Shown here in pieces: positions 14,060 through 64,000 of a DNA stretch of 64,000 nt. A model generated the notes under the pieces. It did not search any database. It saw only the letters and a program-made list of their open reading frames with translations, and was not told the DNA's origin. This stretch comes from Diplonema papillatum. Lineage: Eukaryota > Euglenozoa > Diplonemea > Diplonemida > Diplonemidae. The position numbers and the translations under genes were made by a program. The stretch is from the NCBI GenBank assembly GCA_030068145.1, contig JAPJBO010000114.1:308165-372164 (forward strand), read 5' to 3'. The number at the start of each line of letters is the position of its first letter. The stretch's first letter is position 1.

Positions 14060-16037
<1,978 letters not shown>

Positions 16038-20204: not shown

Positions 20205-21569
<1,365 letters not shown>

Positions 21570-36894: not shown

Positions 36895-37145
36895 GACCAG
36901 TCAATTATGCGGTACTCCGCCACCCACCACCATTCAGCCATGATCTAGCAAGAGCAAAATTGCAAAGCCTACTACCGGATAGTGTTACGGAGGCGAACGA
37001 ATCATGCGAGACATGCGAGAACCTGTGGGGGGCCCCTCGACAGTTTTTATAACACGGCATAGTAGGTCAAGAACCGGATAAGTGTGTTCCTTCTATTTCA
37101 GTCTGATCTGTATTTTGCATCCCCTCCCTCTCCCTCCCTCCAGTC
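36895..37145. repeat. Right arm of the 230-bp inverted repeat (partner 33757-33990)
   Basis: This runs into the C-terminal codons of the MULE transposase. See the partner entry for shared phrases. Confidence 0.75.
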
Positions 37146-38240
37146 TGTATCGGCAATAATACCCTTGTCCCTGTCGCTGACGACTGATTCAAATGTAAGG
37201 CTGTTTTTAATATTTTCAAAGAAATACCCCCCGGATTCCTCGTTTTCGCTGGAGCAGAAAGCAAACGCTACAGGCAGCAAACGTGCCTCAGCGTCTTTTC
37301 CAACTGCAGTCAGCAGAGTTCCTTTCAGGGCGCCTTTCAAAAACGTCCCATCGACCGCAATGATTGGCAAGGCAGCTGCCTGTGCGGCCCGGCATCCGCC
37401 AAGGACCATTGACGCGAACTTGAAGCGCTCGTGCCCTTGCACGACATGGCTCCTCACAACACAAACGCTTTGGGCATCGTGCTCGTGAAGAAAAGAAAAG
37501 TAGCCACGCAGCTTGGTGAAGCCTTCCCCTGCAAATGCCACTGTGTTCTGAAGTGCCCTCTCCTTCGCCTGCCACACGACCTTGTACGAAACCTCCTCTT
37601 TTTTGATGTGGGCTTGCAGCTGCTTCGGTGTTGTTTTGGGTTCCGCGCAAACAAGGTCTTCCACCTCACGAGCTATCCAAGAAGTTTTGAGCCTCCCAGT
37701 GGCAGCCTTTTGCAAGAGGTTGCACGTATGCGCAGTGCAGGAAGAGACTCGCACCTCTGCTCCCCGCACATGCGCGCCCGTTATCGGCCTTTGCAGTGCA
37801 CTTAAAAAGTGTCCTATGTGCGTCGCTGCGCTTTCGAACGCACGTCCGAGAAGCTGAAAACGTTGTTCTCAGCACTGCGTCGCAAAACGCCTCCATGTCT
37901 TCGAAGACAGCCCCAACTGACAGGAGTGCGTCATCATCACCGTTATCTGACGAAACTAGTGAGGCAGTGTCAACGTCACCGTCATCGACATCTGACGAAA
38001 CTAGTGGAGCAGCTTCTGACTCGGAGGCTGGCATAGCGGGCGAGTCTGGTGGCGGTACTTCTTCCGAAGATTGCGCTGCACGTATAAGAGCGGACAAAAG
38101 TACGGCTGGTGAATGGGAAAGTGCCTCTACCGCTGAGTGGACGTCGCGGATCAGGGCAAATCCCAGGATCTTTGCCCTGATGTTGTCGGATTCAAAGGGT
38201 AAATCCTTTATGACTCGTAAGCAGTCTGCACATGGACAAA
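37098..38240 (-). pseudogene. MULE (Mutator-like element) transposase, degraded
   Basis: MULE transposases cut and join DNA with a DDE catalytic triad. The upstream part (37740-38240) has acidic repeats (LVSSDVDDGDVDTASLVSSD) and the FAR1/MuDR-type entry segment GAVFEDMEAFCDAVLRTTFS, then C...C residues. After a frame change near 37750 the second part (to 37098) reads SSCTAHTCNLL, KTSWIAREVEDLVCAEPK, then the DDE core: PIIAVDGTFLKGALKGTLL (first Asp) and SVVSDRDKGI (second Asp). The frame stops about 20 residues later, so the region with the catalytic Glu is missing. This copy cannot be autonomous as it stands. Its 5' side abuts the terminal array at 38251-38614. Confidence 0.85.
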
Positions 38241-42309: not shown

Positions 42310-44850
42310 TCGCTCGCTTTTCGTTGATTCATAAAATCTCTGTTTCGTGTGTACAAAGTCGGATTGGGTGGTTGCGCCTTCGGCGCTTCAATGTTTTATT
42401 AAGAGAGATCGCTCAGGTTGCTCCCAGTCGATTTCAGTGTGTGGGGTCTCAATTTCAGTGAGTTTGCGATTCGTTCGCAACACTATACAGTCGTCTGGCC
42501 TTGGAGCACTTGAAGGTCGTACTTTCCCCCGACGGGGTTTCCGACTTGTTCCGGTTTTACAGGCTACTTTTTGCTCGCTTTTCGTTGATTCATAAGATCT
42601 CTGTTTCGATCCGACTTTGTACACAAAGTCGGATTGGGTGCTTGCGCCTTCGGCGCTAGAATCTTTTATTAAGAGAGATCGGTCAGGTTGTTCTCAGTCG
42701 ATTTCAGTGTGTGGGGTCCCAATCTCAGCGTGTTTGTGATTCGTTCGCAACACTAACAGTTCGTCTGCCTAGGAGCACTTGATTTCAGTGTGTGGGAGTC
42801 CCAACTTCAGCGTGTTCGTGATTCGTTTGCAACACTATACAGTCGTCTGGCCTTGGAGCACCTGCATCTCGTACTTTCCCTCGATGGGGTTTCCGACTTG
42901 TTCCGGGTTTACAGGCTCCTTTTTGCTCGCTTTTCGCTGATTCATAAGATGTCTGTTTCGTGTGTACAAATCGGTTTCGGTGGTTGCGCCTTCGGCGCTT
43001 GAATCTTTTATTAAGAGAGATCGCTCAGGTTGTTCTCAGTCGATTTCAGTGTGTGGGGTCCCAATATCAGTTAGTTTGCGATTCGTTTGCAACACTAACA
43101 ATTCGTCTGCCTAGGAGCACTTGATTTCAGTGTGTGGGGTGCCAACTTCAGCGTGTTTGTGATTCGTTTGCAACATTAAACTGTCGTCTGGCCTTGAAGC
43201 ACTTGAAGGTCGTTTGAGTGTCGGGGCAGCACAACCCTGATTCGTGGGCTACAAGCGGTGTTCGCATCCACTCGCTTGGAGGATGAAACCCAACCCCCCT
43301 ACATCACCACACAGGAATGTTGGAAGCAGAGAAGCCGCACCAGAAGCGGTATGGGAGTCATTGCCGATCTGTGGAAGGTTCAGGTACTTTTTGAAGTGCA
43401 CTTTTCGCTGATACAATATGCAAGCACCATACAGGACATTGAAACAGCCTCGGAACCGTGCCGGCCTTAGTTCTTGTTGGCTGATCAGTGGTATGCCGTA
43501 GCATCTTTTCGTGCACTTTCCCGCTGATTCCCTGTTGTCGTGTACAAAGTCGGATTGGGTGGTTGCGCCTTCGGCGCTTCAATCTTTTATTAAGAGAGAT
43601 CGCTCAGGTTGTTCCCAGTCGCTTTCAGTGTGTGGGGTCCCAATCTCAGTGTGTTTGCGATTCGTTCGCAACACTAACAGTTCGTCTGCCTAGGAGCACT
43701 TGATTTCAGTGTGTGGGAGTCCCAACTTCAGCGCGTTTGCGATTCGTTTGCAACACTATACAGTCGTCTGGCCTTGGAGCACTTGAAGGTCGTACTTTCC
43801 CCCGACGGGGTTTCCGACTTGTTCCGGTTTTACAGGCTACTTTTTGCTCACTTTTCGTTGATTCATAAGATCTCTGTTTCGTGTGTACAAAGTTGGATTG
43901 GGTGGTTGCGCCTTCGGCGCTTAAATATTTTATTAAGAGAGATCGCTCAGGTTGTTCTCAGTCGATTTCAGTGTGTGGGGTCCCAATCTCAGTGTGTTTG
44001 CGATTCGTTCGCAACACTAACAGTTCGTCTGCCTAGGAGCACTTGATTTCAGTGTGTGGGAGTCCCAACTTCAGCGTGTTTGCGATTCGTTTGCAACACT
44101 ATACAGTCGTCTGGCCTTGGAGCACCTGCATCTCGTGCTTTCCCCCGACGGGGTTTCCGACTTGTTCCGGTTTTGCTACTTTTTGCTCGCTTTTCGTTGA
44201 TTCATAAGATCTCTGTTTCGTGTGTACAAAGTTGGATTGGGTGGTTGCGCCTTCGGCGCTTGAATCTTTTATTAAGAGAGATCGCTCAGGTTGTTCTCAG
44301 TCGATTTCAGTGTGTGGGGTCCCAATCTCAGCGTGTTTGCGATTCGTTCGCAACACTAACAGTTCGTCTGCCTAGGAGCACTTGATTTCAGTGTGTGGGA
44401 GTCCCAACTTCAGCGTGCTTGCGATTCGTTTGCAACACTATACAGTCGTCTGGCCTTGGAGCACCTGCATCTCGTGCTTTCCCCCGATGGGGTTTCCGAC
44501 TTGTTCCGGTTTTACAAGCTACTTTTTGCTCGCTTTTCGTTGATTCATAAGATCTCTGTTTCGTGTGTACAAAGTTGGATTGGGTGGTTGCGCCTTCGGC
44601 GCTTAAATATTTTATTAAGAGAGATCGCTCAGGTTGTTCTCAGTCGATTTCAGTGTGTGGGGTCCCAATCTCAGCGTGTTTGCGATTCGTTCGCAACACT
44701 AACAGTTCGTCTGCCTAGGAGCACTTGATTTCAGTGTGTGGGAGTCCCAACTTCAGCGTGTTTGCGATTCGTTTGCAACACTAAACAGTCGTCTGGCCTT
44801 GAAGCCCTTGAAGGTCGTTTAAGTGTCGGGGCAGCACAACCCTGATTCGT
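42310..44850. repeat. Satellite, right arm (direct orientation)
   Basis: Seven units are marked by GCGCCTTCGGCGC (near 42377, 42646, 42987, 43566, 43909, 44248 and 44591). Units near 43700-44730 repeat every 335-350 bp with high similarity. Confidence 0.9.
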
Positions 44851-45484
44851 GGGCTACAAGCGGTCCCCTACATCACCACACAGGAAAGTTGGAAGCAGAG
44901 AAGCCACCCCCAGAAGCGGTATGGGAGTCATTGCCGATCTGTGGAAGGTACAGGTACTTTTTGAAGTGCACTTTTCGCTGATACAATATGCAAAAACCAT
45001 ACAGGACATTGAAACGGCCTCGGAAACGTGCCGGCCTTAGTTCTTGTTGGCTAAACAGTGGTATGCTGTAGCATCTTTTCGTGCACTATCCCGCTGATTC
45101 GTTCGCAACACGAGCAGTTTAGGAGCACTTGATTGCAGTGTATACTTGAGCTCAGCGTGTTTGTGATCTGTTTGCAACACTTTAAAGTCGTCTGCCTCGG
45201 ATCACTTCATTTCAGACTACGACTAGAGTATTGCTGCAAGTGCTCAAGTGCAAACTGCTACTATTACGGCCGTGAAGCGCACACCGGACACAAAGCAAGA
45301 CGACCGCATGACACGACACGTGCAAAGAGTTCTAAGGTCGATAGCGGCTTTGTGCAGTATCATCACAAGCACCTGGTCTTTTTTTAGAGTTGTCGTTTTC
45401 AGAGTTCTTTTTTTCCGACGTTTTTTCTCGACATTTTTTCACCTTTCCCCCCCCAATTATTTTTCCGGAACTTTCTCCGAAAAA
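44851..45484. other. Right arm unique stretch shared with 29560-30055
   Basis: Contains CCGGCCTTAGTTCTTGTTGG, GCACACCGGACACAAAGCAA and a T-rich GTTGTCGTTTTCAGAGTTC stretch. All are also present in the partial element on the left; about 110 bp (45065-45180) are missing there. Confidence 0.7.
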
Positions 45485-45905
45485 GGTACCGATAAGGTCG
45501 CAACCTCAAAAATAGGTACCGATAAGGTCGCAACCTCCAAAAGAGGTACCGATACCGTCGCACTCTCAAAAGGTACCGATAAGGTCGCACCTCGTCTTTT
45601 TTTCAGACTGCTTTTTTCTCGAAAAAAAATTTTCCGTTTTTTTCTTCTTCAAAAAGGTACCGATAAGGTCGCAACCCCAAAAAGGTACCGATAAGGTCGC
45701 AACCTCCAAAAGGTACCGATAAGGTCGCAACCTCCAAAAGAGGTACCGATAACGTCGCAACCTCCAAAAGAGGTACCGATAAGGTCGCAACCCCAAAAAG
45801 GTACCGATAAGGTCGCACCTCAAAAAGGTACCGATAAGGTCGCAACCCCCAAAAGGTACCGATAAGGTCGCAACCCAGAAATGGGCAAAAGAGGTACCGA
45901 TAAGG
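45485..45905. repeat. GGTACCGATAAGGTCGCAAC array, copy 3
   Basis: About fourteen units adjoin the right terminus. Confidence 0.92.
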
Positions 45906-46093
45906 TCTCATGCGACGTTCTCGGGACCGTCGCCATGACATTTTTACTATATTCTCACTTCTTGTCTAAACCTGGAGCTGGATTTTGTTACAAACACGGA
46001 AATTTGAGTCGCGAACTTGTTGTGCACCCATATGTATGAAAACCAACAGGAGAAGGTGGCTCCTCTCCGGGATCAAAATCTTTTTTCGTGGCT

Positions 46094-46560
46094 GTAATGG
46101 GGCAGCTCTTCGGTTAGAGTCGCGTAGAGCATTTCCATTACAAAAAACTTCGGTTAGAGTCGCAAGCCATTTTCATTGAGAAAAACTTCGGTTAGAGTTG
46201 CGTAGAGCATTTCCATTACAAAAAACTTCGGTTAGAGTTGCAAGCCATTTCCATTGAGAAAAACTTCGGTTAGAGTCGCAAGCCATTTTCATTGAGAAAA
46301 AACTTCGGTTAGAGTCGCGTAGAGCATTTTCATTACAAAAAACTTCGGTTAGAGTCGCAAGCCATTTTCATTACAAAAAACTTCGGTTAGAGTCGCAAGC
46401 CATTTCCATTGAGAAAAACTTCGGTTAGAGTCGCAAGCCATTTTCATTACAAAAAACTTCGGTTAGAGTCGCAAGACATTTTCATTACAAAAAACTTCGG
46501 TTAGAGTCGCAAGCCATTTTCATTGAGAAAAAACTTCGGTTAGGGTTGCGTAAGGGTCGC
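46094..46560. repeat. 38-bp satellite CTTCGGTTAGAGTCGCAAGC (direct orientation)
   Basis: About 13 copies of CTTCGGTTAGAGTCGC plus AAGCCATTTTCATTACAAAA or a GTAGAGCATTTCC variant are present. The same unit occurs inverted at 52931-53592 and 54780-54915, so it brackets the Penelope-like element. Confidence 0.93.
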
Positions 46561-46829
46561 AAAAGAAAGAAATGCGTAGTTTTGTTTTATTCTTTTACTT
46601 GTTAGTTGTCGACAACTTGTTTTTGTGTTGAGGTGTCATTCAGATGTAAATCTAAAGCCGCCCACGTCAAATTTTGTTAAGCAGCGGCTGCCAAAACTTG
46701 CCGTGACACCTATGAACAAAGTAAAGTGGAGAAGAGAATAGAAGGTTGTCTAAAAAAGAAAGGGGGGGGTAGTGAATATTTTTTGACCCTCGTAGCTCGC
46801 TGGGTCAGGCGCGCCAGGCAGGTGCTGGG
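46561..46829. other. 3' flank of the Penelope-like ORF
   Basis: About 270 bp without coding capacity, with a G run near 46765. I searched for a hammerhead core (CTGATGA) and did not see one. Confidence 0.4.
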
Positions 46830-49800
46830 CTAATTTCGGTCTGGGCTTGGACTTTGCAGTCCTCCCATATTCCTTTCGCAAGTCCTTTCGTGTACACCCA
46901 CTCCAAACACGTTTGCGAACGGGTTGCCGGACCTTGTTGTTGTAACACCACAGTGGCGGCATTTAAGTAGTACGTTCTGCTCTTGTGTTTGTGGGATGTT
47001 CGCGGGTGGACTGGCCTGCGAGTCTTGTGTTTGTGTTGGCGTCGACGGTCCTAGCGGGAGATCCGGTGTCGGCGTTCGCAGTTGCGCATTTGGCTGTTCC
47101 GGTGTTGCTGGACTAGCGGTTGGCTGTTCCGGTGATTCCGGTTGAGCGGGTGGCTGTGCTGCTGATTCCGGTTGTGCTTGCGGCTGCTGTTCTCGCGGGC
47201 GGACGGATTCCTCTGGGAGTGTCGAAGAGGCGGAAGAACTTTCCGGAGATTCTGCTCGAGGGTCGAGGAACCTTTTTACCTGCATATTGGTGATCGTGCC
47301 TAACACTGGGATGTAGTGTACTTGGGCAATATAGCCGAGCAATATGAGAGGGCCTGTTTCGCCTACCGTTTGGGTGTGGAACTTATTCCTCTCATCGATT
47401 GTAAAAAGGCGGATTTGCACTTTTTTGAGTTGTGTGAAAGCTACGAGGGACAGGTAGTCACCCCAGCTGTAGTTCTCACGCAGCTTTTCGATGTATTGGG
47501 AAGTATCCAAATCAGGCAGGAAGGCTCGTAGGTCGTCTCTGTGTGCATCCCAGTAGTCTGCCAGTTCGTTGCGGAGGACCATTTGGTCTCCTTGTTCATA
47601 AGTCAAGCTCAAAAACAGGCAGTTTCCGTTACCGGCTACAGTTCGCGGCTGCAGTCCTATCTGTCTAAGTCTAGCTGTAAGCTTCAACTCGCGTTTGAGA
47701 AGTCTATCACGTGGGCCTTCTTGCTGGATGTTTGGGGGTCTGGCGGATGGGGAAAGAATTGGAGGTCTGGCGGATGGGGAAAGATTTGGAATGCAATTAT
47801 CTCTCGAAAGCGAGGATACTACTTCACTTACTTTCTTTGTTCTTCTTCGGCCTACTCGTTTTTGTTCTTCAATCAGCGGAAACCCCGCGTAGTATGAAAC
47901 GATGCACTTTTGGAACCATTGTTTCAGAGACCGTTGCGACGCGCCGAGGTTAGGCAGACGTTCCTGCACTCCGTGGTGGAAGACTGTTTTCAGCTTCTGA
48001 ATGCGGTGACCTCTATTCAGCAGCAGGTAGAGTACTAGCTGAATTTCCCTCAGTGCGTCGTGCCAGTTGTTGCACAGGTTGAGGCAGCGAATGAGCAAGT
48101 TTTTCAGTATGGCAGACCCCTGGTGGTCAGGGATTGTCGACCATTGGTGAACGAACCTTACTGGTTTGAAGTGCCAGTTCCTTGTTTTGTCATTGACTGA
48201 AAGTCTGACAAAGCTAAGGTGGTCGCTTGTGCTTTGCTCTAGCCGTATTCGAATACCTAGGTATTCCACGTCACCTTCTGCCAGGGTTGTTTCTTTGTAT
48301 ATCATTTTGTAAAGTGCCGCTGGGGGTGGTTCGACGAACCATGTAAGGAAGTCGTCCATATACCTTTTTGAGTCCCTGTGTGCTTTTGCCTTCGCCTCGT
48401 CTTCCTTCATGAGCTCGTCCACGTATCTGGACTCAACGTCATAGCAATATAAGTTTGCTAGATCGGGTGACGCGTTGGCTCCAAGAGGAAGTCCAAATAC
48501 CTGTCGCATGCAGATACCGCCCTGCTCTACGTAGCAGTTGTCAACGCATAAAGCTATGAGAGCCTCGATATCTTGCTGGGTATAGGACTTTTCCTTTTTG
48601 GTGCCTCCAAAAAGTGTAAACTCGCTTGTCTTAGCGAACTCGAAGGCTTCTTTCACTGCATTTGCGACACCTTTTTTGAGGTCTTCTTGCGGAAGTTCGT
48701 TGAACATGGTTTTGAAGTCAAATGTTCGGGGAAGTTTTTTCCGAAGGTACCTATATCGTTGTTTGATTTCAGCAGCGACTTCATCGGCACTCTCGATAAT
48801 CCAGTACCTGGATATCCCTTTTTCCGCTTTCAGAATGTCATCTTTAGCTTTCAGGAACTGCATCGTTAGTTTTAAGAGTTGTGAGAGTAGTGTATTTGCT
48901 TCTGTTGTCGCTGCTTTTGGTTTTCCTTTCGTAGGCTTCGTTTGGGGGGGCGGGGGTGCGGGAGGGGGCTCGTCGTCAAAGTCGAGGCCACTAGGTTCTT
49001 TCACACAGACAGGGGGGCTGCGAGAGGATACTCCTGCTATCCAGCGCATCCCTTTCTTTTCCTTGTGTAGTTTTGGGAGGCCGTAGAGGTAGGGTAGCTT
49101 ACCTGTAGGGTTGAAACCCAGTGAGACGTTTATTGCTGCCAGAGTAGTGCGCAACTCGTCGGTGGCATGCACTTCTGCATAACAGTTCGAACGAAGTTGG
49201 TTTTGCAGCATGCGGTGGTAGTGTTTTTTACACACAAATCCTACATCGTGCCTGCTCTTGTCAACTTTTGTCAGGATGAAGTGTGACTTTAACACTTTAA
49301 GAGAGTCGAGAACTTTCTTTGGAATGGTGTCTGGTGTGAGGTGTGGGTGTTGGGCGAACCTTGTTTTCATTTCTGAGACAATGGCGTCCGTTAGTTTCTC
49401 TTGTACCGAGTGAGAGCTTGCTTTAAAAGTGGACGTCACATATGCTGAAATGTCTTTTTCCATGTTCTCGAACACATGGTCAATGTGGGAGGGTAGTCTG
49501 TATTTGAGGCCCATGTCGAAGAGGTGAAGCAGCTCTTCGTCCATTTTGATGTCGTGGGCCGTGCACATGACATGCCCTTCGTGAGTAACGTCGGCCGTGT
49601 TTTCTTTGAGGAATTGTGTACAAGGGCATGATTTTGTCAGGTCTTGGAAGTCTACTTGTTGTGTGTTGAGACTTTCTTCAGTCACATTTAGCAGGAAGCT
49701 AGATGTGGGGGGACCCAATTTATTGCAAATACGCGTTTTGCTAAGAAGCTCGGGCGTAGGGCAAGCTTCAACAACCTTCTGGCTGCGTAGGACTTGACCG

Positions 49801-50723
49801 AGCTGGATAGCATCTATCGTTTTATGCGAAAAGTTCAGTTTGAGCCATTTTATTGAAAAATCTTTTTTCCTTTGTAGTTTGTTTAGAGAGAAGGGCGTCA
49901 AACGTGAGATAAGTTTCCTTTCGAGTACTTCTACTTTCGATGTGAAGTACTCGCCAACCAGGAAGCGACGCATGAACGATAAGACTCGTGTAACTCGGCG
50001 CAGCTGCCAGTTATCGAGATCGTATTCTGCTAACACTGCTTCATCCAGTTGAAAAAGGGCATTGAGGTGGCGTTTTATGCCTTTCCATCTGCCTTCCTCG
50101 ATGAGGACGGGGGTAGTGCCTTGCAGTTCTCGAATCTGATCTGCGTTCTCACGGCGGTTGGCACGCTTCTGAGACGATGTGGCGGTCCTCTCTTTTTTAG
50201 GGGGGCGTTTTTTGTTTTTCCTGCTCCGTTTTCCTACAGCTGTTGAATACAGGCCTTTCTGGTTAAGAGGGGGGCTCAACTTGTTGATGTAGTGGTATTC
50301 GCGGGGGAGGGCTTGCCGGTGGAAAAGAAACTTGTTTCTTTTATTGGAGTTGGCTGACTCCGGGGTGAAAGCAACTTTTTCTAAGACAACTGCCAAGAGA
50401 GGTGATTGTCGTCGGATAAGGTGTTCTTCTATTTTGGTAGGTTGTTGTTGTCTCCGTTGTTTGCTGCGCGCGCTGGAAAAATGAGCCGATACCCTAGTGA
50501 ACGCCTTCCCACTTGTTTGACCAACGTAGAGCAGGTTACCTGCTTCGTTGGAAAGGCCATAGATGACCCCTTTCTGCTCTAGGTCACCGGTGGCATGGGG
50601 AACATCCCACTTGTATTTCTCCTTGATCAACGTAAGAGCCTTGCTGCACGCGTTCAAGAAGAAAGAAAGAAAGGGCCTCAAGACAGAAACCTGGTTTAGC
50701 TTGTGTCTCTTCCCAAGGGAAGA
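46830..50723 (-). CDS. Penelope-like retroelement protein: GIY-YIG nuclease, reverse transcriptase, OTU protease
   Basis: The frame is uninterrupted for almost 1,300 codons. Numbering from 50681: residues 38-140 form a GIY-YIG nuclease (GVIYGLSN..GNLLYVGQTS, closing with REYHYINKLSPPLN). Residues about 520-870 form a reverse transcriptase with LPYLYGLPKLHK, GLPLGANASPDLANLYCYD, RYMDDFLTW (catalytic DD) and VEYLGIRI, as in Penelope-like elements. Residues about 1010-1130 resemble an OTU cysteine protease (TVAGNGNCLFLSLTYEQGD with the Cys, WGDYLSLVAF, and AQVHYIPV with the His; the usual Asp of DGNC is replaced). A CRHCG..H..C finger closes the protein. N-terminal GIY-YIG is known in permuted Penelope-like clades; the OTU addition is unusual. 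No ATG precedes the nuclease: the frame opens after a stop at 50724-50726. Confidence 0.8.
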   Translation of the reverse strand, partial: SSLGKRHKLNQVSVLRPFLSFFLNACSKALTLIKEKYKWDVPHATGDLEQKGVIYGLSNEAGNLLYVGQTSGKAFTRVSAHFSSARSKQRRQQQPTKIEEHLIRRQSPLLAVVLEKVAFTPESANSNKRNKFLFHRQALPREYHYINKLSPPLNQKGLYSTAVGKRSRKNKKRPPKKERTATSSQKRANRRENADQIRELQGTTPVLIEEGRWKGIKRHLNALFQLDEAVLAEYDLDNWQLRRVTRVLSFMRRFLVGEYFTSKVEVLERKLISRLTPFSLNKLQRKKDFSIKWLKLNFSHKTIDAIQLGQVLRSQKVVEACPTPELLSKTRICNKLGPPTSSFLLNVTEESLNTQQVDFQDLTKSCPCTQFLKENTADVTHEGHVMCTAHDIKMDEELLHLFDMGLKYRLPSHIDHVFENMEKDISAYVTSTFKASSHSVQEKLTDAIVSEMKTRFAQHPHLTPDTIPKKVLDSLKVLKSHFILTKVDKSRHDVGFVCKKHYHRMLQNQLRSNCYAEVHATDELRTTLAAINVSLGFNPTGKLPYLYGLPKLHKEKKGMRWIAGVSSRSPPVCVKEPSGLDFDDEPPPAPPPPQTKPTKGKPKAATTEANTLLSQLLKLTMQFLKAKDDILKAEKGISRYWIIESADEVAAEIKQRYRYLRKKLPRTFDFKTMFNELPQEDLKKGVANAVKEAFEFAKTSEFTLFGGTKKEKSYTQQDIEALIALCVDNCYVEQGGICMRQVFGLPLGANASPDLANLYCYDVESRYVDELMKEDEAKAKAHRDSKRYMDDFLTWFVEPPPAALYKMIYKETTLAEGDVEYLGIRIRLEQSTSDHLSFVRLSVNDKTRNWHFKPVRFVHQWSTIPDHQGSAILKNLLIRCLNLCNNWHDALREIQLVLYLLLNRGHRIQKLKTVFHHGVQERLPNLGASQRSLKQWFQKCIVSYYAGFPLIEEQKRVGRRRTKKVSEVVSSLSRDNCIPNLSPSARPPILSPSARPPNIQQEGPRDRLLKRELKLTARLRQIGLQPRTVAGNGNCLFLSLTYEQGDQMVLRNELADYWDAHRDDLRAFLPDLDTSQYIEKLRENYSWGDYLSLVAFTQLKKVQIRLFTIDERNKFHTQTVGETGPLILLGYIAQVHYIPVLGTITNMQVKRFLDPRAESPESSSASSTLPEESVRPREQQPQAQPESAAQPPAQPESPEQPTASPATPEQPNAQLRTPTPDLPLGPSTPTQTQDSQASPPANIPQTQEQNVLLKCRHCGVTTTRSGNPFANVFGVGVHERTCERNMGGLQSPSPDRN

Positions 50724-50935
50724 TCAAGACAGAAATCCAGTTTGACCTGTGTTGGCAAGTGTGGCCTCAAGACAGAAACCTGGTTTAGCCTGTGTCTCTT
50801 CCCAAGGGAAGATCAAGACAGAAATCCAGTTTGACCTGTGTTGGCAAGTGCCTCAAGACAGAAACCTGGTTTAGCCTGTGTCTCTTTCAAAGGGAAGATC
50901 AAGACAGAAATCCAGTTTGACCTGTGTTGGCACCA
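50675..50935. repeat. Three copies of an 87-bp repeat at the 5' edge of the Penelope-like ORF
   Basis: CCTCAAGACAGAAACCTGGT, TGTGTCTCTTCCCAAGGGAA and AATCCAGTTTGACCTGTGTT recur three times in order. The first copy overlaps the start of the open frame, so the repeat may be the element's own 5' region. Confidence 0.9.
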
Positions 50936-51080
50936 CACTCAACCCACCCACACCCCACCAACCTCTCACCCACCCCACTCACACCCACACCTCACTCACC
51001 AACCCACCCCCCAACCCACCCACCCCACACCCACTCCCACATCACCCACCTCACTCACCAACCCACCACCCCACAGGCAT
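50936..51080. repeat. C-rich CACCCACC low-complexity tract
   Basis: Irregular CCCACC/CACTCAC repeats with strong strand asymmetry. Confidence 0.9.
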
Positions 51081-52930
51081 GTCTCTACTTAGCAAAATCT
51101 CTACTTTGTGACAAAGTAGAGATTGGGTTCAGAACTAAGTAGAGATTGGGTCCCAGGACAAAGTAGAGATGGGGGGTGGCTATTTTGGGTTAGTCCATCT
51201 CTACTTTGTCCTGAACCCAATCTCTACTTTGTCCAATCTCTACTTTGTCCCGAGTCAAAATCTCTACTTAGTTCTGAACCCAATCTCTCCTTTGTCACAA
51301 AGTAGAGATTGGGTTCAGAACTAAGTAGAGATTGGGTCCCAGGACAAAGTAGAGATGGGGGGTGGCTATTTTGGGTTAGTCCATCTCTACTTTGGGTTGA
51401 AAAATTGGGTGAAATTTTTTGGGTGTCAAGTTTTTTGGGTCAAAAATTTGGCATGTGCTCAGAAAGAAGACCAGCTCCATGTGTCCCACCACACCCATCC
51501 ACATCCTGATAGGCTGCCGCTTTTTTTTGCAACATGAAGACATGCCCAGTGCAAAAAACTCAGAAATTTCCGAAAAATATTTAGGAAATTTTCAACCCAA
51601 TTTTTGACCCAAAAATTTTCACCCAAATTTTCAACCCAAAATTTAACTCAAAAATTTCCAGCCAAAATTTGAACCCAAAATTTTGGACCCAAAATTTTCA
51701 ACCCAAAAAATTTCACCCAAACCCAAAATTTTTGACCCAAAATTTTCAGCTCAAAAATTTTCACCCAAATTTTGAACCCAAAATTTTTGACCCAAAATTT
51801 TGACCCAATTTTTCAACCCAAAGTAGAGATGGACTAACCCAAAATGGCCACCCCCCATCTCTACTTTGTCCTGGGACCCAATCGGCGGGTGTCAGATTTT
51901 GCAAACGCGAAATCTCAGATTTTGCAAAATCTGAGATTGGCGAACCCAGGAATTTTTTTTTGCTGGGCCAAATCTCAGATTTTGAACCTGAAAATCTCAG
52001 ATTTTGCAAACCTGAAATCTCAGATTTTGCAAATCTCAGATTTTGCAAATCTCAGATTTTGCAAAATGGGCCAATCTCAGATTTTGCGTATTTCACCAAA
52101 ATCTCAGATTTTGCAAAATCTGAGATTTTGGTGTGAGTGCAAAATCTGAGATTTTCAGAACTACAACAACAAAAATTTTGGGTCAAATTTTTTTGGGCTC
52201 AGCTTTAGGACAGTTCCAGGCAGTGTGTTCTGTCGGATTGGGGGGGTTGCGCCTTCGGCGCTTAAAATTTTTATTATAAGAGATGGCAGGAGGTTGCCAC
52301 CAGTTGATTTCAGTGTGTGGGGTCCCTATTTCAGGTGTTAAAATTTCGTTTGCAACACTCAAATTTCGTCTGCTTAGGAGCACTTGATTTCAGTGTGTGG
52401 GGTCCCAATTTCAGTTGGTGAAAATTTCGTTTGCAACACTCAAGTTTTGTCTGCACAGGAGCACTGCATTGTGTGAGGAAATCGAAAACCTCAGATTTTG
52501 CAGACCTGAAATCTCAGATTTTGCAAAATCGAAAATCTCAGATTTTGCAAATCTCAGATTTTGCAAAATGGGCCAATCTCAGATTTTGCGTATTTCGCCA
52601 AAATCTCAGATTTTGCAAATCTCAGATTTTGCAAAATCTGAGATTTTCGATTTTGCAAAATCTGAGATTTCGCATTTGCAAAATCTGACACCCGCCACCC
52701 AATCTCTACTTTGTGACAAAGTAGAGATTGGGTTCAGAACTAAGTAGAGATTTTGACTCGGGACAAAGTAGAGATTGGACAAAGTAGAGATTGGGTTCAG
52801 GACAAAGTAGAGATGGACTAACCCAAAATAGCCACCCCCCATCTCTACTTTGTCCCAAGCCAAAATCTCTACTTAGTTCTGAACCCAATCTCTACTTTGT
52901 CACAAAGTAGAGATTTTGCTAAGTAGAGAC
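51081..52930. mobile_element. Nested fold-back element of 1.85 kb
   Basis: It starts GTCTCTACTTAGCAAAATCT and ends with the reverse complement (GCTAAGTAGAGAC). Arms of about 230 bp of TCTCTACTTTGTC palindromes (51081-51400; 52700-52930) enclose second-order arms of AATCTCAGATTTTGC repeats (51890-52160; 52485-52690). The centre (52190-52480) holds one diverged unit of the satellite from the 7.3-kb element, with CGCCTTCGGCGC and TTCAGTGTGTGGGGTCCC. No ORF is credible. The right part recurs at 54576-54915 together with its satellite flank. Confidence 0.75.
51590..51830. repeat. Degenerate AAAATTTTNACCCAAAATT repeat
   Basis: Short AATTTTGACCCAAA-type units, about fifteen, inside the left arm of the 1.85-kb element. 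Confidence 0.75.
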
Positions 52931-53592
52931 CTGCCCTGCGACTCTAACCGAAGTTTTTTGTAATGGAAATGTCGTGCGACTCTAACCAAGTTTTTTGTAA
53001 TGGAAATGCTCTACGCGACTCTAACCGAAGTTTTTCTCAATGAAAATGGCTTGCGACTCTAACCAAAGTTTTTTGTAATGAAAATGGCTTGCAACTCTAA
53101 CCGAAGTTTTTTGTAACATGCAGGGTCAAACCCTTGTGTCTTTTTAAAACGCTCCCGCGGGGCCGATGGAGCCCTGAAAAATTTTTCGGGAAAAAAAAAA
53201 ATTGCTCAACTTCCTCAAAAATTACTGCAGAGTTTGTTCCAAACTTTTAAAATTCAAAAAACCCAATTTTTTTCTGGAATTTTTTTTTTTGCCGTTTTCA
53301 AAAAGACACAAGGTTTTGACCCTGCATGGTAATGGAAATGCTCTACGCGACTCTAACCGAAGTTTTTTGTAATGGAAATGCTCTACGCGGACTCTAACCG
53401 AAGTTTTTCTCAATGAAAATGGCTTGTAACTCTAACCGAAGTTTTTTGTAATGAAAATGTCTTGCGACTCTAACCGAAGTTTTTCTCAATGAAAATGGCT
53501 TGCGACTCTAACCGAAGTTTTTTGTAATGAAAATGTCTTGCGACTCTAACCGAAGTTTTTTGTAATGAAAATGGCTTGCGACTCTAACTAAT
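52931..53592. repeat. 38-bp satellite in inverted orientation, split by a MITE
   Basis: GCGACTCTAACCGAAGTTTT units run from 52935. They are interrupted by the MITE at 53117-53328 and end at the MITE at 53593. Confidence 0.92.
53117..53328. mobile_element. KTAW MITE, copy 4 (full length, inside satellite)
   Basis: CATGCAGGGTC to GACCCTGCATG, flanked by GTAA on both sides (53113-53116, 53329-53332). Removing it with one GTAA restores a TTTTTTGTAATGGAAATG satellite unit exactly. Confidence 0.93.
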
Positions 53593-53805
53593 CATGCAGG
53601 GTCAAAACCTTGTGTCTTTTTAAAACGCTCCCGCAGGGCCGATAGACCCCCAAAAAAAAAGTTGGAAAAAAAAAAATTTTGCTCAACTTCTGCAAAAATT
53701 ACTGCAGAGTTTGTTCCAAACTTTCAAAATTCAAAAAACCCAATATTTTTCCGGAATTTTTTTTTTTGCCATTTTCAAAAAGACACAAGGTTTTGACCCT
53801 GCATG
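53593..53805. mobile_element. KTAW MITE, copy 5 (full length, no matching flanks)
   Basis: Both ends are present, but the left flank is TAAT and the right GTAG. One flank is satellite and the other a different repeat, which suggests recombination between two MITE copies after insertion. Confidence 0.88.
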
Positions 53806-54135
53806 GTAGTTGGCTGCCGGACAAGGTGTAGTTGGACCAATAGCCAGGGGCCAACTACACCTTGTCCGGCAGCCCTAACTACACCTTGTCGGACAAGGTG
53901 TAGTTGGCTGCCGGACAAGGTGTAGTTGGGGCTGCCGGACAAGGTGTAGTTGGACCAATCCAAAATAGCCAGGGGCCAACTACACCTTGTCCGGGAGCCC
54001 TAACTACACCTTGTCCGGCAGCCAACTACACCTTGTCCGGCAGCCCTAACTACACCTTGTCCGGCACCCAACTACACCTTGTCCGGGAGCCCCAACTACA
54101 CCTTGTCCGACAAGGTGTAGCTCGGACAAGGTGTA
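53806..54135. repeat. Palindromic GGACAAGGTGTAGTTGG repeat
   Basis: GCCGGACAAGGTGTAGTTGG and its reverse complement CCAACTACACCTTGTCCGGC alternate about twelve times, able to form several hairpins. Confidence 0.9.
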
Positions 54136-54296
54136 GACCCGCCAGCACAGTGTCGACCACAGTGCTACCACTAAAACCAAATGCGGTGAGCGACATCTCT
54201 TTTAGTTTCAAAATCCTGTCAGCCTGTGAGCTTCAGGATAGCAAACGATCCTCCAGTGACTGATTACGTTAGTGACTGAACACAAACTCGACTTAA

Positions 54297-54465
54297 CATG
54301 CAGGGTCAAAAACTTGTGTCTGTCTTTTTGAAAATGGCAGAAAAAAAAATTCCGGAAAAAAATTGGGTTTTTTGAATTTTAAAAGTTTGGAACAAACTCT
54401 GCAGTAATTTTTGAGGAAGTTGAGCAAAAAAAAAATTCCCAAAAAAAATTGTAGGGCTCCATCGG
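54297..54465. mobile_element. KTAW MITE, copy 6 (right end missing)
   Basis: It begins CATGCAGGGTCAAAAACTTG after TTAA and stops after GGGCTCCATCGG. Confidence 0.8.
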
Positions 54466-54486
54466 GGCACCGTTCCCGATGGCGTC

Positions 54487-54562
54487 CTACTCGGACGCCA
54501 ACTCGACCTTTTTTGATTCATTCCACCTATAGGACGCCAACTCGACCTTTTTTGATTCATTC
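54487..54562. repeat. Two copies of a 43-bp repeat
   Basis: GGACGCCAACTCGACCTTTT plus TTGATTCATTC occurs twice, followed by a third GGACGCC. Confidence 0.8.
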
Positions 54563-54575: not shown

Positions 54576-54915
54576 CGGGTTCAGAACTAAGTAGAGATTG
54601 GGTCCCAGGACAAAGTAGAGATGGGGGGTGGCTATTTTGGGTTAGTCCATCTCTACTTTGTCCTGAACCCAATCTCTACTTTGTCCAATCTCTACTTTGT
54701 CCCGAGTCAAAATCTCTACTTAGTTCTGAACCCAATCTCTACTTTGTCACAAAGTAGAGATTTTGCTAAGTAGAGACCTGCCTTGCGACTCTAACCGAAG
54801 TTTTTTGTAATGGAAATGTCTTGCGACTCTAACCAAGTTTTTTGTAATGGAAATGCTCTACGCGACTCTAACCGAAGTTTTTCTCAATGAAAATGGCTTG
54901 CGACTCTAACCAAAG
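54576..54915. repeat. Copy of 52700-53060 (fold-back arm plus satellite)
   Basis: It is near-identical across the junction from TCTCTACTTTGTC palindromes through AAGTAGAGACCTGCC into the 38-bp satellite. It was duplicated as one piece after the fold-back element had inserted. Confidence 0.8.
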
Positions 54916-55474
54916 TTACAGACAACAAGGTGCGTTTTTTTTTTTTTAGGTGGAGTGTCGAGGACTTGTGGCATTGCCTGCCCCCCTAATCTCCACCCCT
55001 CCCATTACTGTTGGGGGGAGGACCCCTTTTTTCAAAGTTGGTGTTCAGCTGAACAAGTTTCAGCAACACCTCCCTTCTGGAATTCATCTCGCTGTTGTAC
55101 AGAAAACGTGAGTGGAGAACACAAGGAATAAACTGGAGCCGATGCCAGGAACACAAGAGGAAACAAAGAAATGTGGGAGCTAAACTAACGCGGTGCATGT
55201 TGTGCAGCTTCACCAGGGGAAGGGCACGCAAAAAGAAGTTGCCCAACCCTACCGCCAACACCACCCAACCTGGGCTCGTGGTGAGTTAGGGATCCGGGGG
55301 CAGAATTCCCCGCAGCAAACTTAGAGACTTCAGAATGACAGAGAAAGTAGTGAAAGGAAGTGGAAGAGAGGGAGAGAGAGAGAGATGTATACTTTGAAAC
55401 TTGGTGTTCAGCAACACCTCCCATTCTGGACTTCAGAATGACATCCAACAGAGAATGTAGTGAAAGCAAAGTGG

Positions 55475-57268: not shown

Positions 57269-60200
57269 TTAGAGACTGCTGCTGAGGAGGCCATCCCCCG
57301 TGACTCCCCCGGAGGGGGGCTTGTCAGGCCGAGTCACGACAGCATCAGGGAGAGTGAGGTCAACCATCTCTCCCTGCTCCGCTCCTGCTCCTGGGTTTGT
57401 TTGTTTGTTTTTGCTACCGCTGACTGATGATGATGCTGCGCTCCGAGCTACCCCTGTCAAGGGCTGACTTGCTCCCTGGCTCTTTTGCGCGCTTTGTTCC
57501 TGTGACTTGGGGTTGCCTGACCTCCCGCTCGCTCCTGGTTTCCCTCCCCCGGCAAGGGGGGGTCCTTGTTGGCATCTTGTGCCGCTGACTCCTTGGCCGT
57601 TCCGTCCGTCCTGGCCCTCTTTCACTTTCTTGGGGTCTACCACCCTCTGCACCGCCGCACTCCTTTTCCTGGCTGGCGCTGTCGCCGCCCTCTGCTGTCC
57701 CTCCCGCCCTGCCCTGGCTGACTGGCTGCCAGGATCCGCTGCTTGACGCCCTCGGGTGGGCTCAGGACTCACAGTCACCTTCACAGGTCGGGGGCCCCTC
57801 AAGCTCACAGTGGGGGTGGCGGCTCCTCCTGCACCCCCAGTCCCCCTCAAACCGGACGCGTTGCCCAGACGCGACCGGCATGAGTTGCTCGCTTGAGTGG
57901 CCCCTTCCCCGCTCGGGATCGTGATCACCCCTCGCTTCCCCTCCTGCGCTTCGGCCGCCGATCCAGCGCAGTGCTGCCCATTATCTCCGCCCTGGCCAGC
58001 TAGCTGCGCCTGTCCCCCCGCTGCTTTTGGTGTTAATTTTAGTGCGGCACAACCGGGGGCCCCACCTGAGCTCCGGCCCCCGGGTGCCGCTGGGGGGGCG
58101 TACGGACCATACCTTTGAAGCGGCGGCAGTGCCGCCTCCTGCCGCCCTCCTGCTGGCCTTGCCGAGGCTGCTCGGGAAGGGTTGGAGCAACCTCGCCCCG
58201 TCGCGGCTTGGGGCACCAGGATCGCTGGGGAGACGGGGCTGCTCACCCCGCCTGCCCCCCCCTTGCTGGGTGAGTCGACCAAGATCACGCAGTCAGGGGA
58301 GCTCACCGTGGTGGATCCCTCGCCGCTTCGGTTGGAGGCTGCTCCTTGCCTCCCCGACCCCGCCGGCTTCTTCACCACCAGCTTGACGCCGGGCTTCCCA
58401 GCCCTGGCCTCCGGCGCCCTGGCGGCCGGCTTGACGCTCGGAGTCGCGGTACCTGTGCTGGTTTTGGTGGGGGGAGGAGCTGAAGAGTGAGAAGGGGGGG
58501 CTTGGCGTGCCTTCCGCAACGCCTCCCTCCTCAGCAGGGCTCGCGCTTCCATCGCGTCGGCCTCCTGCATCGTCCTCTGCCTCCTCTGCTCCGCGTCCTT
58601 CCTACATACCTCCGCCCGCTCTGCCTCGGCCGCCTTCCGCTTCTCGTCGTTCTTGCGGATGAGCTCCGCGGCCACCGCTTGCGTGACGATTTGCTGGGCC
58701 CGCACCTCAGCAACGCGGGCTGCCTCCTTCTGCTCCGCCTCGGCCCGAAGGAGCGCAGCGGCCTCCGCCGCCTGCGCTGCCTTCCGCCTGGCCCCCCTCT
58801 CCTGCTCGTCTGCGGAGGGGGCCGCACCCGGCTTCGGTGCGGGCTTCGCCGCCGGCTTTGCTGCCGGCTTGGGCGCCGGCTGCGCTCCTGCTTGTTCCTG
58901 TGCTGGGGGTGGATTAGGGCGTACCTGTCTGTTTCCTCCCTCTGGCGGGGGCGGGCCGGAAGAGTCCGAGTCAGCACCCGCCGAGCCCGAGTCGGACGGG
59001 TCTGACCCGCTGCTCTCCTCATCCTCGTCTACGGGAGCCTCATCTCGCTCCTCTCCGCCGTCTGCTTCCGGCATCCCCGGCTCCAGCGACACCAAGGTGT
59101 TCGCCATGGCGATCCTGGAAACCGCCTTCATCACGGCGAAGCTGAGCCGGTGGTAAACCAGCTGGGCGAGGGAGGGGTACGACTCCCAGTCATACCTCCG
59201 GTGCAACGCTGATATCAGCGCCCTCAGCTCCGGCCCTGCCGAGTCCCCCCACGCCCCAAGGGTGTCCACCACGATCGGCACCAGCTCCATCGCCAGCAGG
59301 GGGGCCTCCTGCTCCACCGCTCTCGTGTACTTGCCGCGTTTGACAGCCTCGTACGCGGTAGCCGCCCCCCCTGGTCCTTCGGCCGCTTTCCTGCGCGACC
59401 CCCCGGTCGGCTTCAAGGGGAACGTGATTGCAACGTCAATCAGCCGCAGCTTCCCCCCTCGCTGGTAGGCCACATCGAGGCGGAGCCCCGTGTGCGCCGG
59501 CTGCGTGAACGGCTGCACCTCCAGGGCCGGTGTCAGGAGCGCTTCTCGGGCCACAGCCGCCACCTCGTTACGAAGGGCTGTGTGTGCCCTCGTCCTGAGC
59601 CCCCCGGACATGCAGCACAGGGAGTGGTCCCCCATCACGTCCGCGTCCGCATCCCCGCACAAGCGGCACTTCCCGACCTGCGCCGTCAGGGGAAGCCCTA
59701 GCCTCATGCGCACTGCCACATTGAACTCCGCCGGAGAGAGCCACATCCACTCCGGGGCGTCGTAGCTGCCGTACAGCCAAGCCGCAGAGTGCCTCGCCGC
59801 ACAGCTCTGCATCCTGGCCTGCTTCCTTTCGTCCGCCACCTCCATGATGGCCTCCCTCCTCAGCTGCGCTACTTCGGCGCTCCAGATCTTCTGCTGCCGC
59901 GGTTTCTGTTCCGCTCCCACTCGCTGTGCGTCCTGGACTTTCGTCAGGACGGTAGGGTACTGTGCGAGATGGGGGCAGTTCACTGCCGCTTGGCAAAGGG
60001 GATCTGCGGCCTGGCTGACCCTTGCCCTTGTTTCTGTGCTCATCAGATCCTGCCCTGCCTCCCATCCGCTCAGTGCCGCTGCGACTCCCGCTATCGCAGC
60101 CGTGCTGCCGCAAGAGTGCAGCCCTAGTCCCCCCAACCTTGTCGGGAGGGAAGCCTGTGCCCACGTCTCCTCATCCAGCTCGGCCCCGAGGATGTTCCCC

Positions 60201-62362: not shown

Positions 62363-62363
62363 G
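62324..62363 (-). promoter_or_regulatory. 2A-like motif at the ORF1/ORF2 junction
   Basis: Just inside the ORF2 frame the translation reads DDLTVDGCVEANPGP. NPGP with a preceding VEA matches the core of 2A ribosome-skipping peptides (consensus D-V/I-E-x-N-P-G-P), found near LINE ORF starts in several lineages. The Asp is replaced by Cys, so activity is uncertain. ORF1 stops (TGA) within the same 40 bp, and the two frames are offset by -1. Confidence 0.45.
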
Positions 62364-63753
62364 TCGTCCCCACCCCTGCCCCCGGTTGTGTGCTGTCGGG
62401 GCGGGCTCCGGGACCGTCCGCCTGGGGCGCCGCGTCCTCGTCCATCGGGACACGAGTGCGTCTCCGCTTCGCCGTCTCGCCCGTGTCCTCGCTCTGGTCC
62501 GGCTCTCCTTGGTCCGGCGCAGGCTCGGGGCCTTTCTCCTCCTCCGCCCGGGGCCCGCCCTCGACCACCTGCTCTCCCTTCGGGGGCGGCTCCGGCTGAG
62601 TGTCCACCCCCTGGGCTCCTTCTGCTGTCGTGGGTGCGTCCTGTGGGTTTCCTGGTTTTTCCTGTGGGTTGATTTCCGCTGCCTGCTCCCTCTCCTGCTC
62701 CGCCGGGCCCGCGAGGGACGGGACGCTCTCCATCTCCGACCCCTCGTCCGAGTCCGTTACCTCGACGATCTCCACGCTCGCCTCCCACTCGGCCCACACG
62801 GCGCCGTACCCCGCGTCGTACTCCTCCTGTAGCCACTTCTTGTGCAGGCTGTACAGGTGGGTGGCCGCCCTCCGTGCTCCCGACACCTGCTGTGCCCGCC
62901 ACGCCGCCTTGTGGTCCCGCGCGTGCCGCTCCAACGCTCCCTGCGACTGGACCACCTCTCCACAGGTGGGGCAGACCCGGAAGTCCGCCACGCCCTGCTC
63001 CGTTGGGGGGAGGGGAAGCTGCTCGTCGCAGGCCGTCCACATTGCCCACAGCTCCTGCAAAAACGCGTGGCGGACCACGCTTCTCGCCGTCCCCTCCTCC
63101 CCGAGCAGGACCTCCATCGCAAGGGCCTGCGCTTCCCCAGCAAACGGGAATGCCGGGTGAAGCCCCCCCTTCCTTTGCACCCGCCCCGACCTCACGATGG
63201 GGGTCCCTGCGTGCTGCCCCTCCCCAAAAAAAAAAACGGAAGCGGCCATACCACTTCCCTTGCCTCCGACTGCGTTCCCAAGCGGCTGGGAAGGCGCGCC
63301 CTTCTGCCGCTGCTCCCGCGGCGAGTGCGCAAGCGCGCAGCTTCCGTCCCGGCAGCCTTCGATGCGGCACAGGGCGACGTGCCGGAACCGACACGTCTCG
63401 CGGCTGCAGCCGCGCGTCGCAAAGTCCCAGCAAGCTGGGGCCGCCGCGTCGTTGCGAGCGTGCCGGAACCGGCACCGCTCCCCAAACCGGCACTCGCCGG
63501 TCTTCGCGAACTCCCAGCAGGGAGGCGCTAAGGGGCCCCCGCCGCCTGCCTGCGCCTCCGCTGGGGGAGCCTTGCCGCCTTTCGCTCCGGCGGGCTGCCC
63601 GCCGCCCTTCGCGCCCTTCACGTCGGCGGGCTGTCCGCCTCCGCCTCCGGCTCCCCTCGAGCCCTTCGCCCCGATGCCCGTCGCCAAGGCTGCCGCGTAC
63701 GATGGGGGCCCGGCACCCCTCGCCTGCTGCGGCGCTCCTGCTCCGTCCGACAT
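62359..63753 (-). CDS. LINE ORF1: CCCH and C2H2 zinc-finger protein
   Basis: A 464-residue frame starts at an ATG at 63753. After a Gly/Ala-rich leader come three CCCH fingers: residues 79-98 (CWEFAKTGECRFGERCRFRH), 108-125 (CWDFATRGCSRETCRFRH) and a shorter one near 129-143 (CRIEGCRDGSCALAH). A C2H2 finger (CPTCGEVV...ALERHARDH) lies near 261-281. CCCH fingers bind RNA; C2H2 fingers in R2-like LINEs contact target DNA. The C-terminal third is acidic and Pro-rich. A run of 11 T (near 63225-63236) lies in the coding strand, a potential slippage point, since the ORF2 frame is also open there. Confidence 0.75.
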   Translation of the reverse strand: MSDGAGAPQQARGAGPPSYAAALATGIGAKGSRGAGGGGGQPADVKGAKGGGQPAGAKGGKAPPAEAQAGGGGPLAPPCWEFAKTGECRFGERCRFRHARNDAAAPACWDFATRGCSRETCRFRHVALCRIEGCRDGSCALAHSPREQRQKGAPSQPLGNAVGGKGSGMAASVFFFGEGQHAGTPIVRSGRVQRKGGLHPAFPFAGEAQALAMEVLLGEEGTARSVVRHAFLQELWAMWTACDEQLPLPPTEQGVADFRVCPTCGEVVQSQGALERHARDHKAAWRAQQVSGARRAATHLYSLHKKWLQEEYDAGYGAVWAEWEASVEIVEVTDSDEGSEMESVPSLAGPAEQEREQAAEINPQEKPGNPQDAPTTAEGAQGVDTQPEPPPKGEQVVEGGPRAEEEKGPEPAPDQGEPDQSEDTGETAKRRRTRVPMDEDAAPQADGPGARPDSTQPGAGVGTT

Positions 63754-64000
63754 CCCCTCCCTCGCGCGTTGTGTACGGGGGGCGTGTGTGCGTGGGTGCG
63801 GTTCAGGTGTGGGTGAGTGCGGGTGGTGTGCGTGTATGTTCTTTTTTGTTTTCGTGTGCGTGTGGGACGGTGGTGTGGGGTAGGTGGTGTGTGGCTTGCG
63901 CGTGTGCGAGCTAGGGGTGGACGCAAAGTGCAGGGCTTGCGTCCTGCACCGTGCGCCTCTCTAGCTCGCTTCCTTTGGGTTACCAACTTCTTTGTGTCTC
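63754..64000. other. 5' UTR side of the LINE, window edge
   Basis: GT-rich on the plus strand (GTGTGCGTGGGTGCGGTT) and without a gene; cut by the window end. Confidence 0.5.

What the first reader, a model, noticed from the sequence alone, without database searches (positions are those of the whole stretch)
46830..50723. Retroelement protein with GIY-YIG, reverse transcriptase and OTU protease in one frame
N-terminal GIY-YIG nucleases are known in permuted Penelope-like elements. Here an OTU-like cysteine protease with recognisable Cys and His blocks follows the RT, plus a terminal C2HC finger. A protease or deubiquitinase on a Penelope-like protein is, to my knowledge, not a standard architecture. 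It could process the polyprotein or counter ubiquitin-mediated removal.
Basis: partly seen in the sequence, partly recalled or inferred. Interest (0 to 1): 0.75.

Follow-up and report, generated by a model that had tools for sequence, protein, structure and literature searches.

The report
Retroelement carrying its own deubiquitinase
A jumping gene of a microbial eukaryote makes one protein that joins a DNA cutter, a telomerase-like reverse transcriptase and a predicted ubiquitin-removing enzyme, and its relatives carry other kinds of ubiquitin-removing enzyme in the same place, which hints that stripping ubiquitin helps such elements spread.

Summary
Minus-strand frame 46830-50723 (1297 aa) has significant GIY-YIG and OTU matches around a divergent RT and ends in a C2HC finger. 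It is a 5'-truncated copy (about 46565-50665) of a multicopy retroelement: 36 places matched in the host genome, and 9 of 20 fetched copies keep 1544-1547-aa frames. N-terminal GIY-YIG, CxC motif, telomerase-like RT model and pseudo-LTRs (7 of 18 copies) fit the N-terminal-endonuclease Penelope-like elements (PLEs). The OTU is under purifying selection (rough dN/dS 0.05-0.06, like the RT); catalytic Cys, His and the aromatic 'gatekeeper' of deubiquitinases are present in 20 of 20 fetched copies and the window. Beyond the window, a second PLE family of this genome and two Diplonema papillatum proteins carry a USP domain in the same slot between RT and finger; two further relatives carry a Josephin domain there. 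This argues for a ubiquitin-directed role over self-processing. OTU/Ulp1 domains are known in DNA transposons (Ginger1, Helentrons); my searches gave no report on a PLE, but the key PLE paper is not held. Enzyme activity, OTU fold and placement among known PLEs remain unshown.

The parts
46565..50665 (-). the element copy in this window (5'-truncated PLE)
   Evidence: blastn homology with L009 ends here; converted from the oriented coordinates
46830..50723 (-). open frame of 1297 aa incl. stop; first about 20 codons are flanking DNA
50226..50585 (-). GIY-YIG endonuclease region (residues 47-166)
   Evidence: Pfam PF01541 E=3.8e-5; boundaries
49620..49628 (-). CxC motif (Cys-Pro-Cys, residues 366-368)
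   Evidence: CxC found in 10 of 11 related proteins, P0004 starting too late
47988..49292 (-). reverse transcriptase (residues 478-912)
   Evidence: alignments; model; fold comparisons
48351..48362 (-). RT catalytic motif YMDD (residues 788-791)
   Evidence: translation; alignment
47268..47711 (-). OTU domain (residues 1005-1152)
   Evidence: Pfam PF02338; OTUD3 and OTUD5 profile matches
47619..47621 (-). predicted catalytic Cys, residue 1035
47316..47318 (-). predicted catalytic His, residue 1136, followed by Tyr (gatekeeper)
46878..46961 (-). C-terminal C2HC finger (residues 1255-1282)
46565..46829 (-). 3' UTR; in 7 of 18 copies the 3' end sequence recurs at the 5' edge as a pseudo-LTR (not in this truncated copy)
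50671..50932 (.). flanking 86-89-bp tandem repeat beside the truncated 5' end

Best explanation
A 5'-truncated copy of an N-terminal-endonuclease Penelope-like retroelement. Shown: one frame holds GIY-YIG, CxC, a telomerase-like RT, OTU and C2HC finger; the OTU is conserved, with Cys, His and gatekeeper present. Inferred: GIY-YIG nicks the target, the RT copies the element RNA from the nick, and the OTU is an active deubiquitinase held inside the ribonucleoprotein, where it removes host-added ubiquitin. My first guess for its target is the element's own protein (escape from proteasomal removal), about 0.4; second is chromatin or repair proteins at the insertion site, about 0.3.
For: Pfam OTU and GIY-YIG above curated cut-offs in P0001, L009, L017 and L027; OTU in 4 of 4 families. 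OTU profile of four families matches OTUD3 at 2.2e-10 and OTUD5 (3pfy) at 1.2e-7, the latter through the His block. An open OTU with Cys, His and aromatic follower in 20 of 20 fetched copies and the window. dN/dS of OTU 0.05 (A/B) and 0.06 (A/C), against RT 0.07 and 0.02 and the Pro/Gln linker 0.49 and 0.25. The same slot holds USP in another family of this genome (PF00443 9.9e-11; GIY-CxC-RT collinear with P0001, 31% identity, 2e-122) and in D. papillatum P0005/P0006 (5.1e-23/1.3e-20), and Josephin in P0002/P0003 (3.7e-8/7.2e-6). Aromatic residue after the His in 10 of 10 domains examined, a mark of most deubiquitinase families in PMC7391069 (passages). Telomerase in Foldseek ranks 1-12 and VIA ranks 1-11. 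Pseudo-LTRs of 186-247 bp at 99-100% identity in 7 of 18 copies tested.
Confidence: 0.7

Rival explanations
1. Polyprotein-processing protease: the OTU cuts the element protein into endonuclease, RT and finger parts.
For: Cysteine proteases of RNA viruses do this (recalled); for Helentron OTUs, cleavage of the Rep/helicase/endonuclease was proposed (PMC4067079, passages). Variable linkers flank the OTU.
Against: USP and Josephin, not known to me as self-processing enzymes (recalled), fill the same slot. The gatekeeper favours Gly at ubiquitin position 75 (PMC7391069, passages). The only LxGG in families A-C lies within the RT and that of D lies in the finger, so no shared candidate site at a domain border.
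Confidence: 0.1
2. Ubiquitin-binding remnant: the domain no longer cuts but tethers the protein to ubiquitinated chromatin or complexes.
For: Asn for Asp in families A-C; P0004 lacks the Josephin Cys, and the own-genome USP has a Cys box less canonical than that of P0005.
Against: Cys, His and gatekeeper kept in 20 of 20 copies and the window; strong purifying selection; the D. papillatum USPs P0005 and P0006 have canonical Cys and His boxes.
Confidence: 0.13
3. Captured host gene fragment or assembly chimera with no role in the element.
For: Retroelements do pick up host sequence (recalled).
Against: Same architecture in families down to 53% identity, 36 places, 9 of 20 fetched copies with 1544-1547-aa frames, under selection.
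Confidence: 0.02
4. The RT belongs to another retroelement class that gained GIY-YIG on its own.
For: Pfam and NCBIfam give no clear RT family; weak sub-cut-off matches are to group II intron and retron RTs. Low TM-scores and overlap of telomerase and group II rows in VIA. No reference PLE sequences were available to me.
Against: Telomerase first in both fold comparisons, CxC motif, pseudo-LTRs.
Confidence: 0.05

Closest known systems
N-terminal-endonuclease Penelope-like elements (Chlamys/Naiad; Craig et al. 2021, recalled; PMC8557442 not held)
   Same: N-terminal GIY-YIG, CxC linker, telomerase-like RT, pseudo-LTRs; no Cys in the GIY-YIG region printed for family A, as recalled for Chlamys
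   Different: a deubiquitinase-type domain plus C2HC finger after the RT; I recall no such domains described for Chlamys or Naiad
Ginger1 DNA transposons (PMC2836005, passages)
   Same: C-terminal OTU or Ulp1, but not both, in one position of the element protein
   Different: cut-and-paste DDE transposase, not a retroelement; Ulp1 rather than USP or Josephin as the alternative
Helentrons (PMC4067079, passages)
   Same: encode OTU-like cysteine protease
   Different: rolling-circle Rep/helicase, OTU in an additional ORF, no RT named in the passages seen
OTUD3 / OTUD5 (OTU deubiquitinases with solved structures)
   Same: best solved sequence relatives of the domain (4bou 2.2e-10, 3pfy 1.2e-7)
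   Different: not part of a mobile element; families A-C here have Asn for Asp

Membership tests
N-terminal EN+ Penelope-like element (defining features recalled) | GIY-YIG endonuclease upstream of the RT | tested here: met
   Pfam PF01541 above cut-off in P0001, L009, L017, L027
N-terminal EN+ Penelope-like element (defining features recalled) | CxC motif between endonuclease and RT | tested here: met
   P0001 residues 366-368; 10 of 11 proteins examined, P0004 starting too late
N-terminal EN+ Penelope-like element (defining features recalled) | RT closest to telomerase | tested here: met
N-terminal EN+ Penelope-like element (defining features recalled) | insertion-in-fingers domain | tested here: inconclusive
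   extra helices at model residues 143-195 after a low-confidence stretch; not compared residue by residue with the telomerase IFD
N-terminal EN+ Penelope-like element (defining features recalled) | pseudo-LTRs | tested here: met
   7 of 18 copies tested, 186-247 bp, 99-100% identity; the other 11, several 5'-truncated, showed none
N-terminal EN+ Penelope-like element (defining features recalled) | insertion bias for microsatellites | tested here: inconclusive
   TRF arrays within 60 bp of an end in 3 of 18 copies; at both ends only in the window copy; no background rate computed
N-terminal EN+ Penelope-like element (defining features recalled) | no canonical hammerhead ribozyme | tested here: inconclusive
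   no Rfam match at gathering score in window 44000-54500; this copy is truncated and full-length copies were not scanned
N-terminal EN+ Penelope-like element (defining features recalled) | RT groups with PLEs in a phylogeny | not tested
   no reference PLE sequences available; the tree holds only relatives of this element
OTU deubiquitinase | significant OTU profile match | tested here: met
   4 of 4 families, best 2.8e-10; sub-cut-off SAM_1 in 3 of 4
OTU deubiquitinase | catalytic Cys and His | tested here: met
   20 of 20 fetched copies and the window; aligned to OTUD5 through the His block
OTU deubiquitinase | Asp of the DGNC motif | tested here: inconclusive
   Asp in family D, Asn in A-C
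OTU deubiquitinase | aromatic gatekeeper after the His | tested here: met
   Tyr in A-C, Phe in D; criterion from PMC7391069 (passages)
OTU deubiquitinase | OTU fold with Cys near His | tested here: inconclusive
   single-sequence model, pLDDT 41
OTU deubiquitinase | cleaves ubiquitin | not testable with these tools
   needs a bench assay
Ginger1 transposon | Gypsy-type DDE integrase | tested here: not met
   no integrase family in the Pfam scan of P0001 at E<=1

The most novel reading that the evidence does not exclude
A lineage of protist Penelope-like elements has a slot between RT and C2HC finger into which deubiquitinases of different families (OTU, USP, Josephin) were recruited repeatedly; removing ubiquitin is a needed step of their retrotransposition, which would reveal ubiquitination as a host defence against, or control on, this retroelement class.
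Probability: 0.4. Interest if true: 0.85.

Novelty: new variant of a known kind. Interest (0 to 1): 0.7.

Why it matters
Ubiquitin-cleaving domains were known on DNA transposons, and wide involvement of the ubiquitin pathway in transposition was suggested in 2010 (PMC2836005, passages). Here a retroelement with a telomerase-like RT carries one, and its relatives carry domains of two other deubiquitinase families in the same position. That makes 'retrotransposition needs deubiquitination' testable with a single-protein element. It also indicates that two D. papillatum database entries named 'putative ubiquitin carboxyl-terminal hydrolase 16' are retroelement proteins.

Tried and rejected
OTU structure: single-sequence AlphaFold gave pLDDT 41, so no fold search was made with it. 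Own-genome copies were not handed to the structure tool, because its stated rule does not list such loci.

Protein search with the OTU domain alone: 40 candidates, none significant. Viral contigs with alignment A1: 28 pattern matches, none a relative. The first protein search scored 7994 candidates and found 3; the profile search scored 7998 and found 4; both lists were capped.

RT profile against PDB sequences: nothing significant, best E=0.6. NCBIfam: weak sub-cut-off group II and retron RT matches to P0001. Pfam finds no GIY-YIG in the own-genome USP element at E<=0.01; its GIY-YIG rests on the alignment with P0001.

Whether USP was gained once or twice: the RT tree needs 2 changes for the USP label, but 28% of 200 bootstrap trees show one group, and long branches meet: undecided. 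The root, and so the direction of change, is undecided too; repeated recruitment is the bold reading, not a result.

Assembly chimera and chance match rejected. An internal TAG listed for the 53-54% copies was not pursued; that family's frame ends a few residues before the end of P0001, so it may be the terminal stop (inference).

P0007 and P0008 lack most or all of the USP; P0008's RT part reads like P0005's, so a gene model that skips the USP is likely (by eye).

Papers: (Josephin + retrotransposon) listed 20 of 30; judged by titles none concerns Josephin domains, and the matches look like the Josephine Bay Paul Center (recalled). Searches (2 papers; 1; 1; 20 of 103 listed; 4; 15 of 3628 listed; 1) showed no report of a deubiquitinase on a PLE; I saw listings, and passages of some papers only. 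Craig 2021 is not held, and Repbase was not searchable. The D. papillatum genome paper PMC10161547 has no 'Penelope' and no 'ubiquitin' in its held main text (term search). The Ectocarpus TE paper PMC12477816 lists Chlamys PLEs and has no 'OTU' or 'ubiquitin' (term search).

Never answered: own-genome searches for RVT_1, OTU, Josephin, P0002 and P0005. So the host could not be compared with D. papillatum, and other deubiquitinase types in this genome were not surveyed.

Full report
What is there. The minus-strand frame 46830-50723 is open over 1297 codons. Pfam finds OTU (3.3e-8) and GIY-YIG (3.8e-5), both above the curated cut-offs, and no RVT_1. Between them lie a CxC motif (residues 366-368) and a divergent RT with YMDD (788-791); after the RT come the OTU (Cys1035, His1136) and a C2HC finger (1255-1282).

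The copy is truncated. Other copies in the same genome align from residue 21 or later, the frame has no Met before residue 251, and residues 1-19 match a unit of the flanking 86-89-bp tandem repeat. Homology with a full copy runs from about 50665 down to 46565. So the window holds a 5'-truncated copy, as expected from target-primed reverse transcription (inference).

The family. In the host genome (271 Mb, 2910 contigs, unnamed) the search gave 37 rows for 36 places, the window's included, from 36 scored of 5432 candidates, in identity bands of 98-100%, 88-93%, 80-81% and 53-54%. Representatives are called families A (100%), B (89%), C (81%) and D (53%). Of 20 fetched copies, 9 keep frames of 1544-1547 aa with the first ATG at codon 14. 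Copies of family C are 99.9% identical over 5.8-5.9 kb with different flanks, so recent activity is likely (inference). Seven of 18 copies tested have direct repeats of 186-247 bp at 99-100% identity between 5' edge and 3' end; the other 11, several of them 5'-truncated, have none. Such pseudo-LTRs are described for PLEs (PMC11167929, passages).

The OTU. A profile of the four families matches OTUD3 at 2.2e-10 and OTUD5 at 1.2e-7, in the latter through the His block. An open OTU with Cys, His and Tyr/Phe after it was found in 20 of 20 fetched copies and the window. Nei-Gojobori dN/dS of the OTU is 0.05 (A/B) and 0.06 (A/C), against RT 0.07 and 0.02, GIY-YIG 0.02 and 0.03, and the Pro/Gln linker 0.49 and 0.25. 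Synonymous sites are near saturation: the OTU in B/C, and all parts against D except the finger in C/D (0.33), gave no ratio. Between A and D the OTU is 45% identical, the RT 63%. Against full function: families A-C have Asn where D has Asp in G(D/N)GNC. The fold prediction of the OTU failed.

The variable slot. Next to copy L014 lies the end of a different element: 621 residues with a USP domain (PF00443, 9.9e-11). Its frame is 2663 aa and its upstream part is collinear with P0001 over GIY-YIG, CxC and RT (31% identity, 2e-122), though Pfam sees no GIY-YIG there at E<=0.01. 72 rows, 71 places, match in the genome (71 scored of 1535 candidates). A profile search found D. papillatum proteins P0005 and P0006, named 'putative ubiquitin carboxyl-terminal hydrolase 16', with GIY-YIG at or just above cut-off, CxC, RT, USP (5.1e-23, 1.3e-20) and finger. 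P0002 (from ENA) and P0003 (from JGI), of unnamed organisms, have GIY-YIG below cut-off, CxC, RT, Josephin (3.7e-8 and 7.2e-6, both above cut-off) and a finger. P0004, a shorter relative, has a Josephin-like His block but Pro for Cys. A C-terminal C2HC pattern is found in 11 of 13 sequences scanned; P0004 and P0007 lack it, and P0008 has it without a USP; in shuffles of four of them the pattern arose in 0, 1, 5 and 11 of 2000. In the RT tree the OTU proteins and the Josephin proteins each form one group (100/100); the USP proteins are unresolved.

What it does. In most deubiquitinase families the residue after the catalytic His is aromatic and contacts Gly-75 of ubiquitin, excluding larger side chains (PMC7391069, passages). 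It is Tyr or Phe in the OTUs and USPs here and Trp in the Josephins, 10 of 10 examined. Three deubiquitinase families in one slot, selection on the OTU, and no shared LxGG at a domain border favour a ubiquitin-directed activity over self-processing. Which ubiquitin it removes is inference: the element's own protein (0.4), or chromatin and repair proteins at the insertion site (0.3). A role towards DNA repair was proposed for Ginger1, which carries OTU or Ulp1 but not both (PMC2836005, passages).

Novelty. OTU domains are known in Ginger1 and Helentrons. My searches showed no report of a deubiquitinase on a PLE, but the library holds open licences only, some listings were partial, Craig 2021 is not held and Repbase was not searchable. 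I call it a new variant of a known kind; the slot with different enzymes is the surprising part.

Noticed in passing
L014:8037-9899 (-) with L029:1-6225 (-): A second PLE family with GIY-YIG-like region, CxC, RT, USP and two C-terminal finger patterns, and a long N-terminal region of degenerate repeats (by eye); 71 places in the genome.
   Followed up: partly
D. papillatum proteins P0005, P0006 (and P0007, P0008): Database entries named putative ubiquitin carboxyl-terminal hydrolase 16 or hypothetical protein look like retroelement proteins; P0007 and P0008 look like gene models that skip the USP.
   Followed up: partly
window 57269-63802 (-): 2177-aa frame with RVT_1 (3e-11), perhaps a LINE-type element, mostly in a 67-70% GC stretch.
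   Followed up: no
window 6274-7641, 14540-15907, 20205-21569 (-): Three very similar frames that I recognise as alpha-tubulin (recalled, no profile run), without introns; with TMC (2197-4446) and cyclophilin (25069-26190) frames all on one strand, as in polycistronic genomes such as those of Euglenozoa (inference).
   Followed up: no
window 46108-46543, 52937-53116, 53347-53588, 54782-54917: 38-bp minisatellite arrays; those beyond the 5' side are inverted relative to the one at 46108-46543.
   Followed up: no
window 37098-37868 (-): MULE transposase match (2.7e-9).
   Followed up: no
L024 and L026: OTU-PLE copies interrupted by about 1.1-1.35 kb related to the 3' part of the USP-type element: nested insertions.
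   Followed up: no
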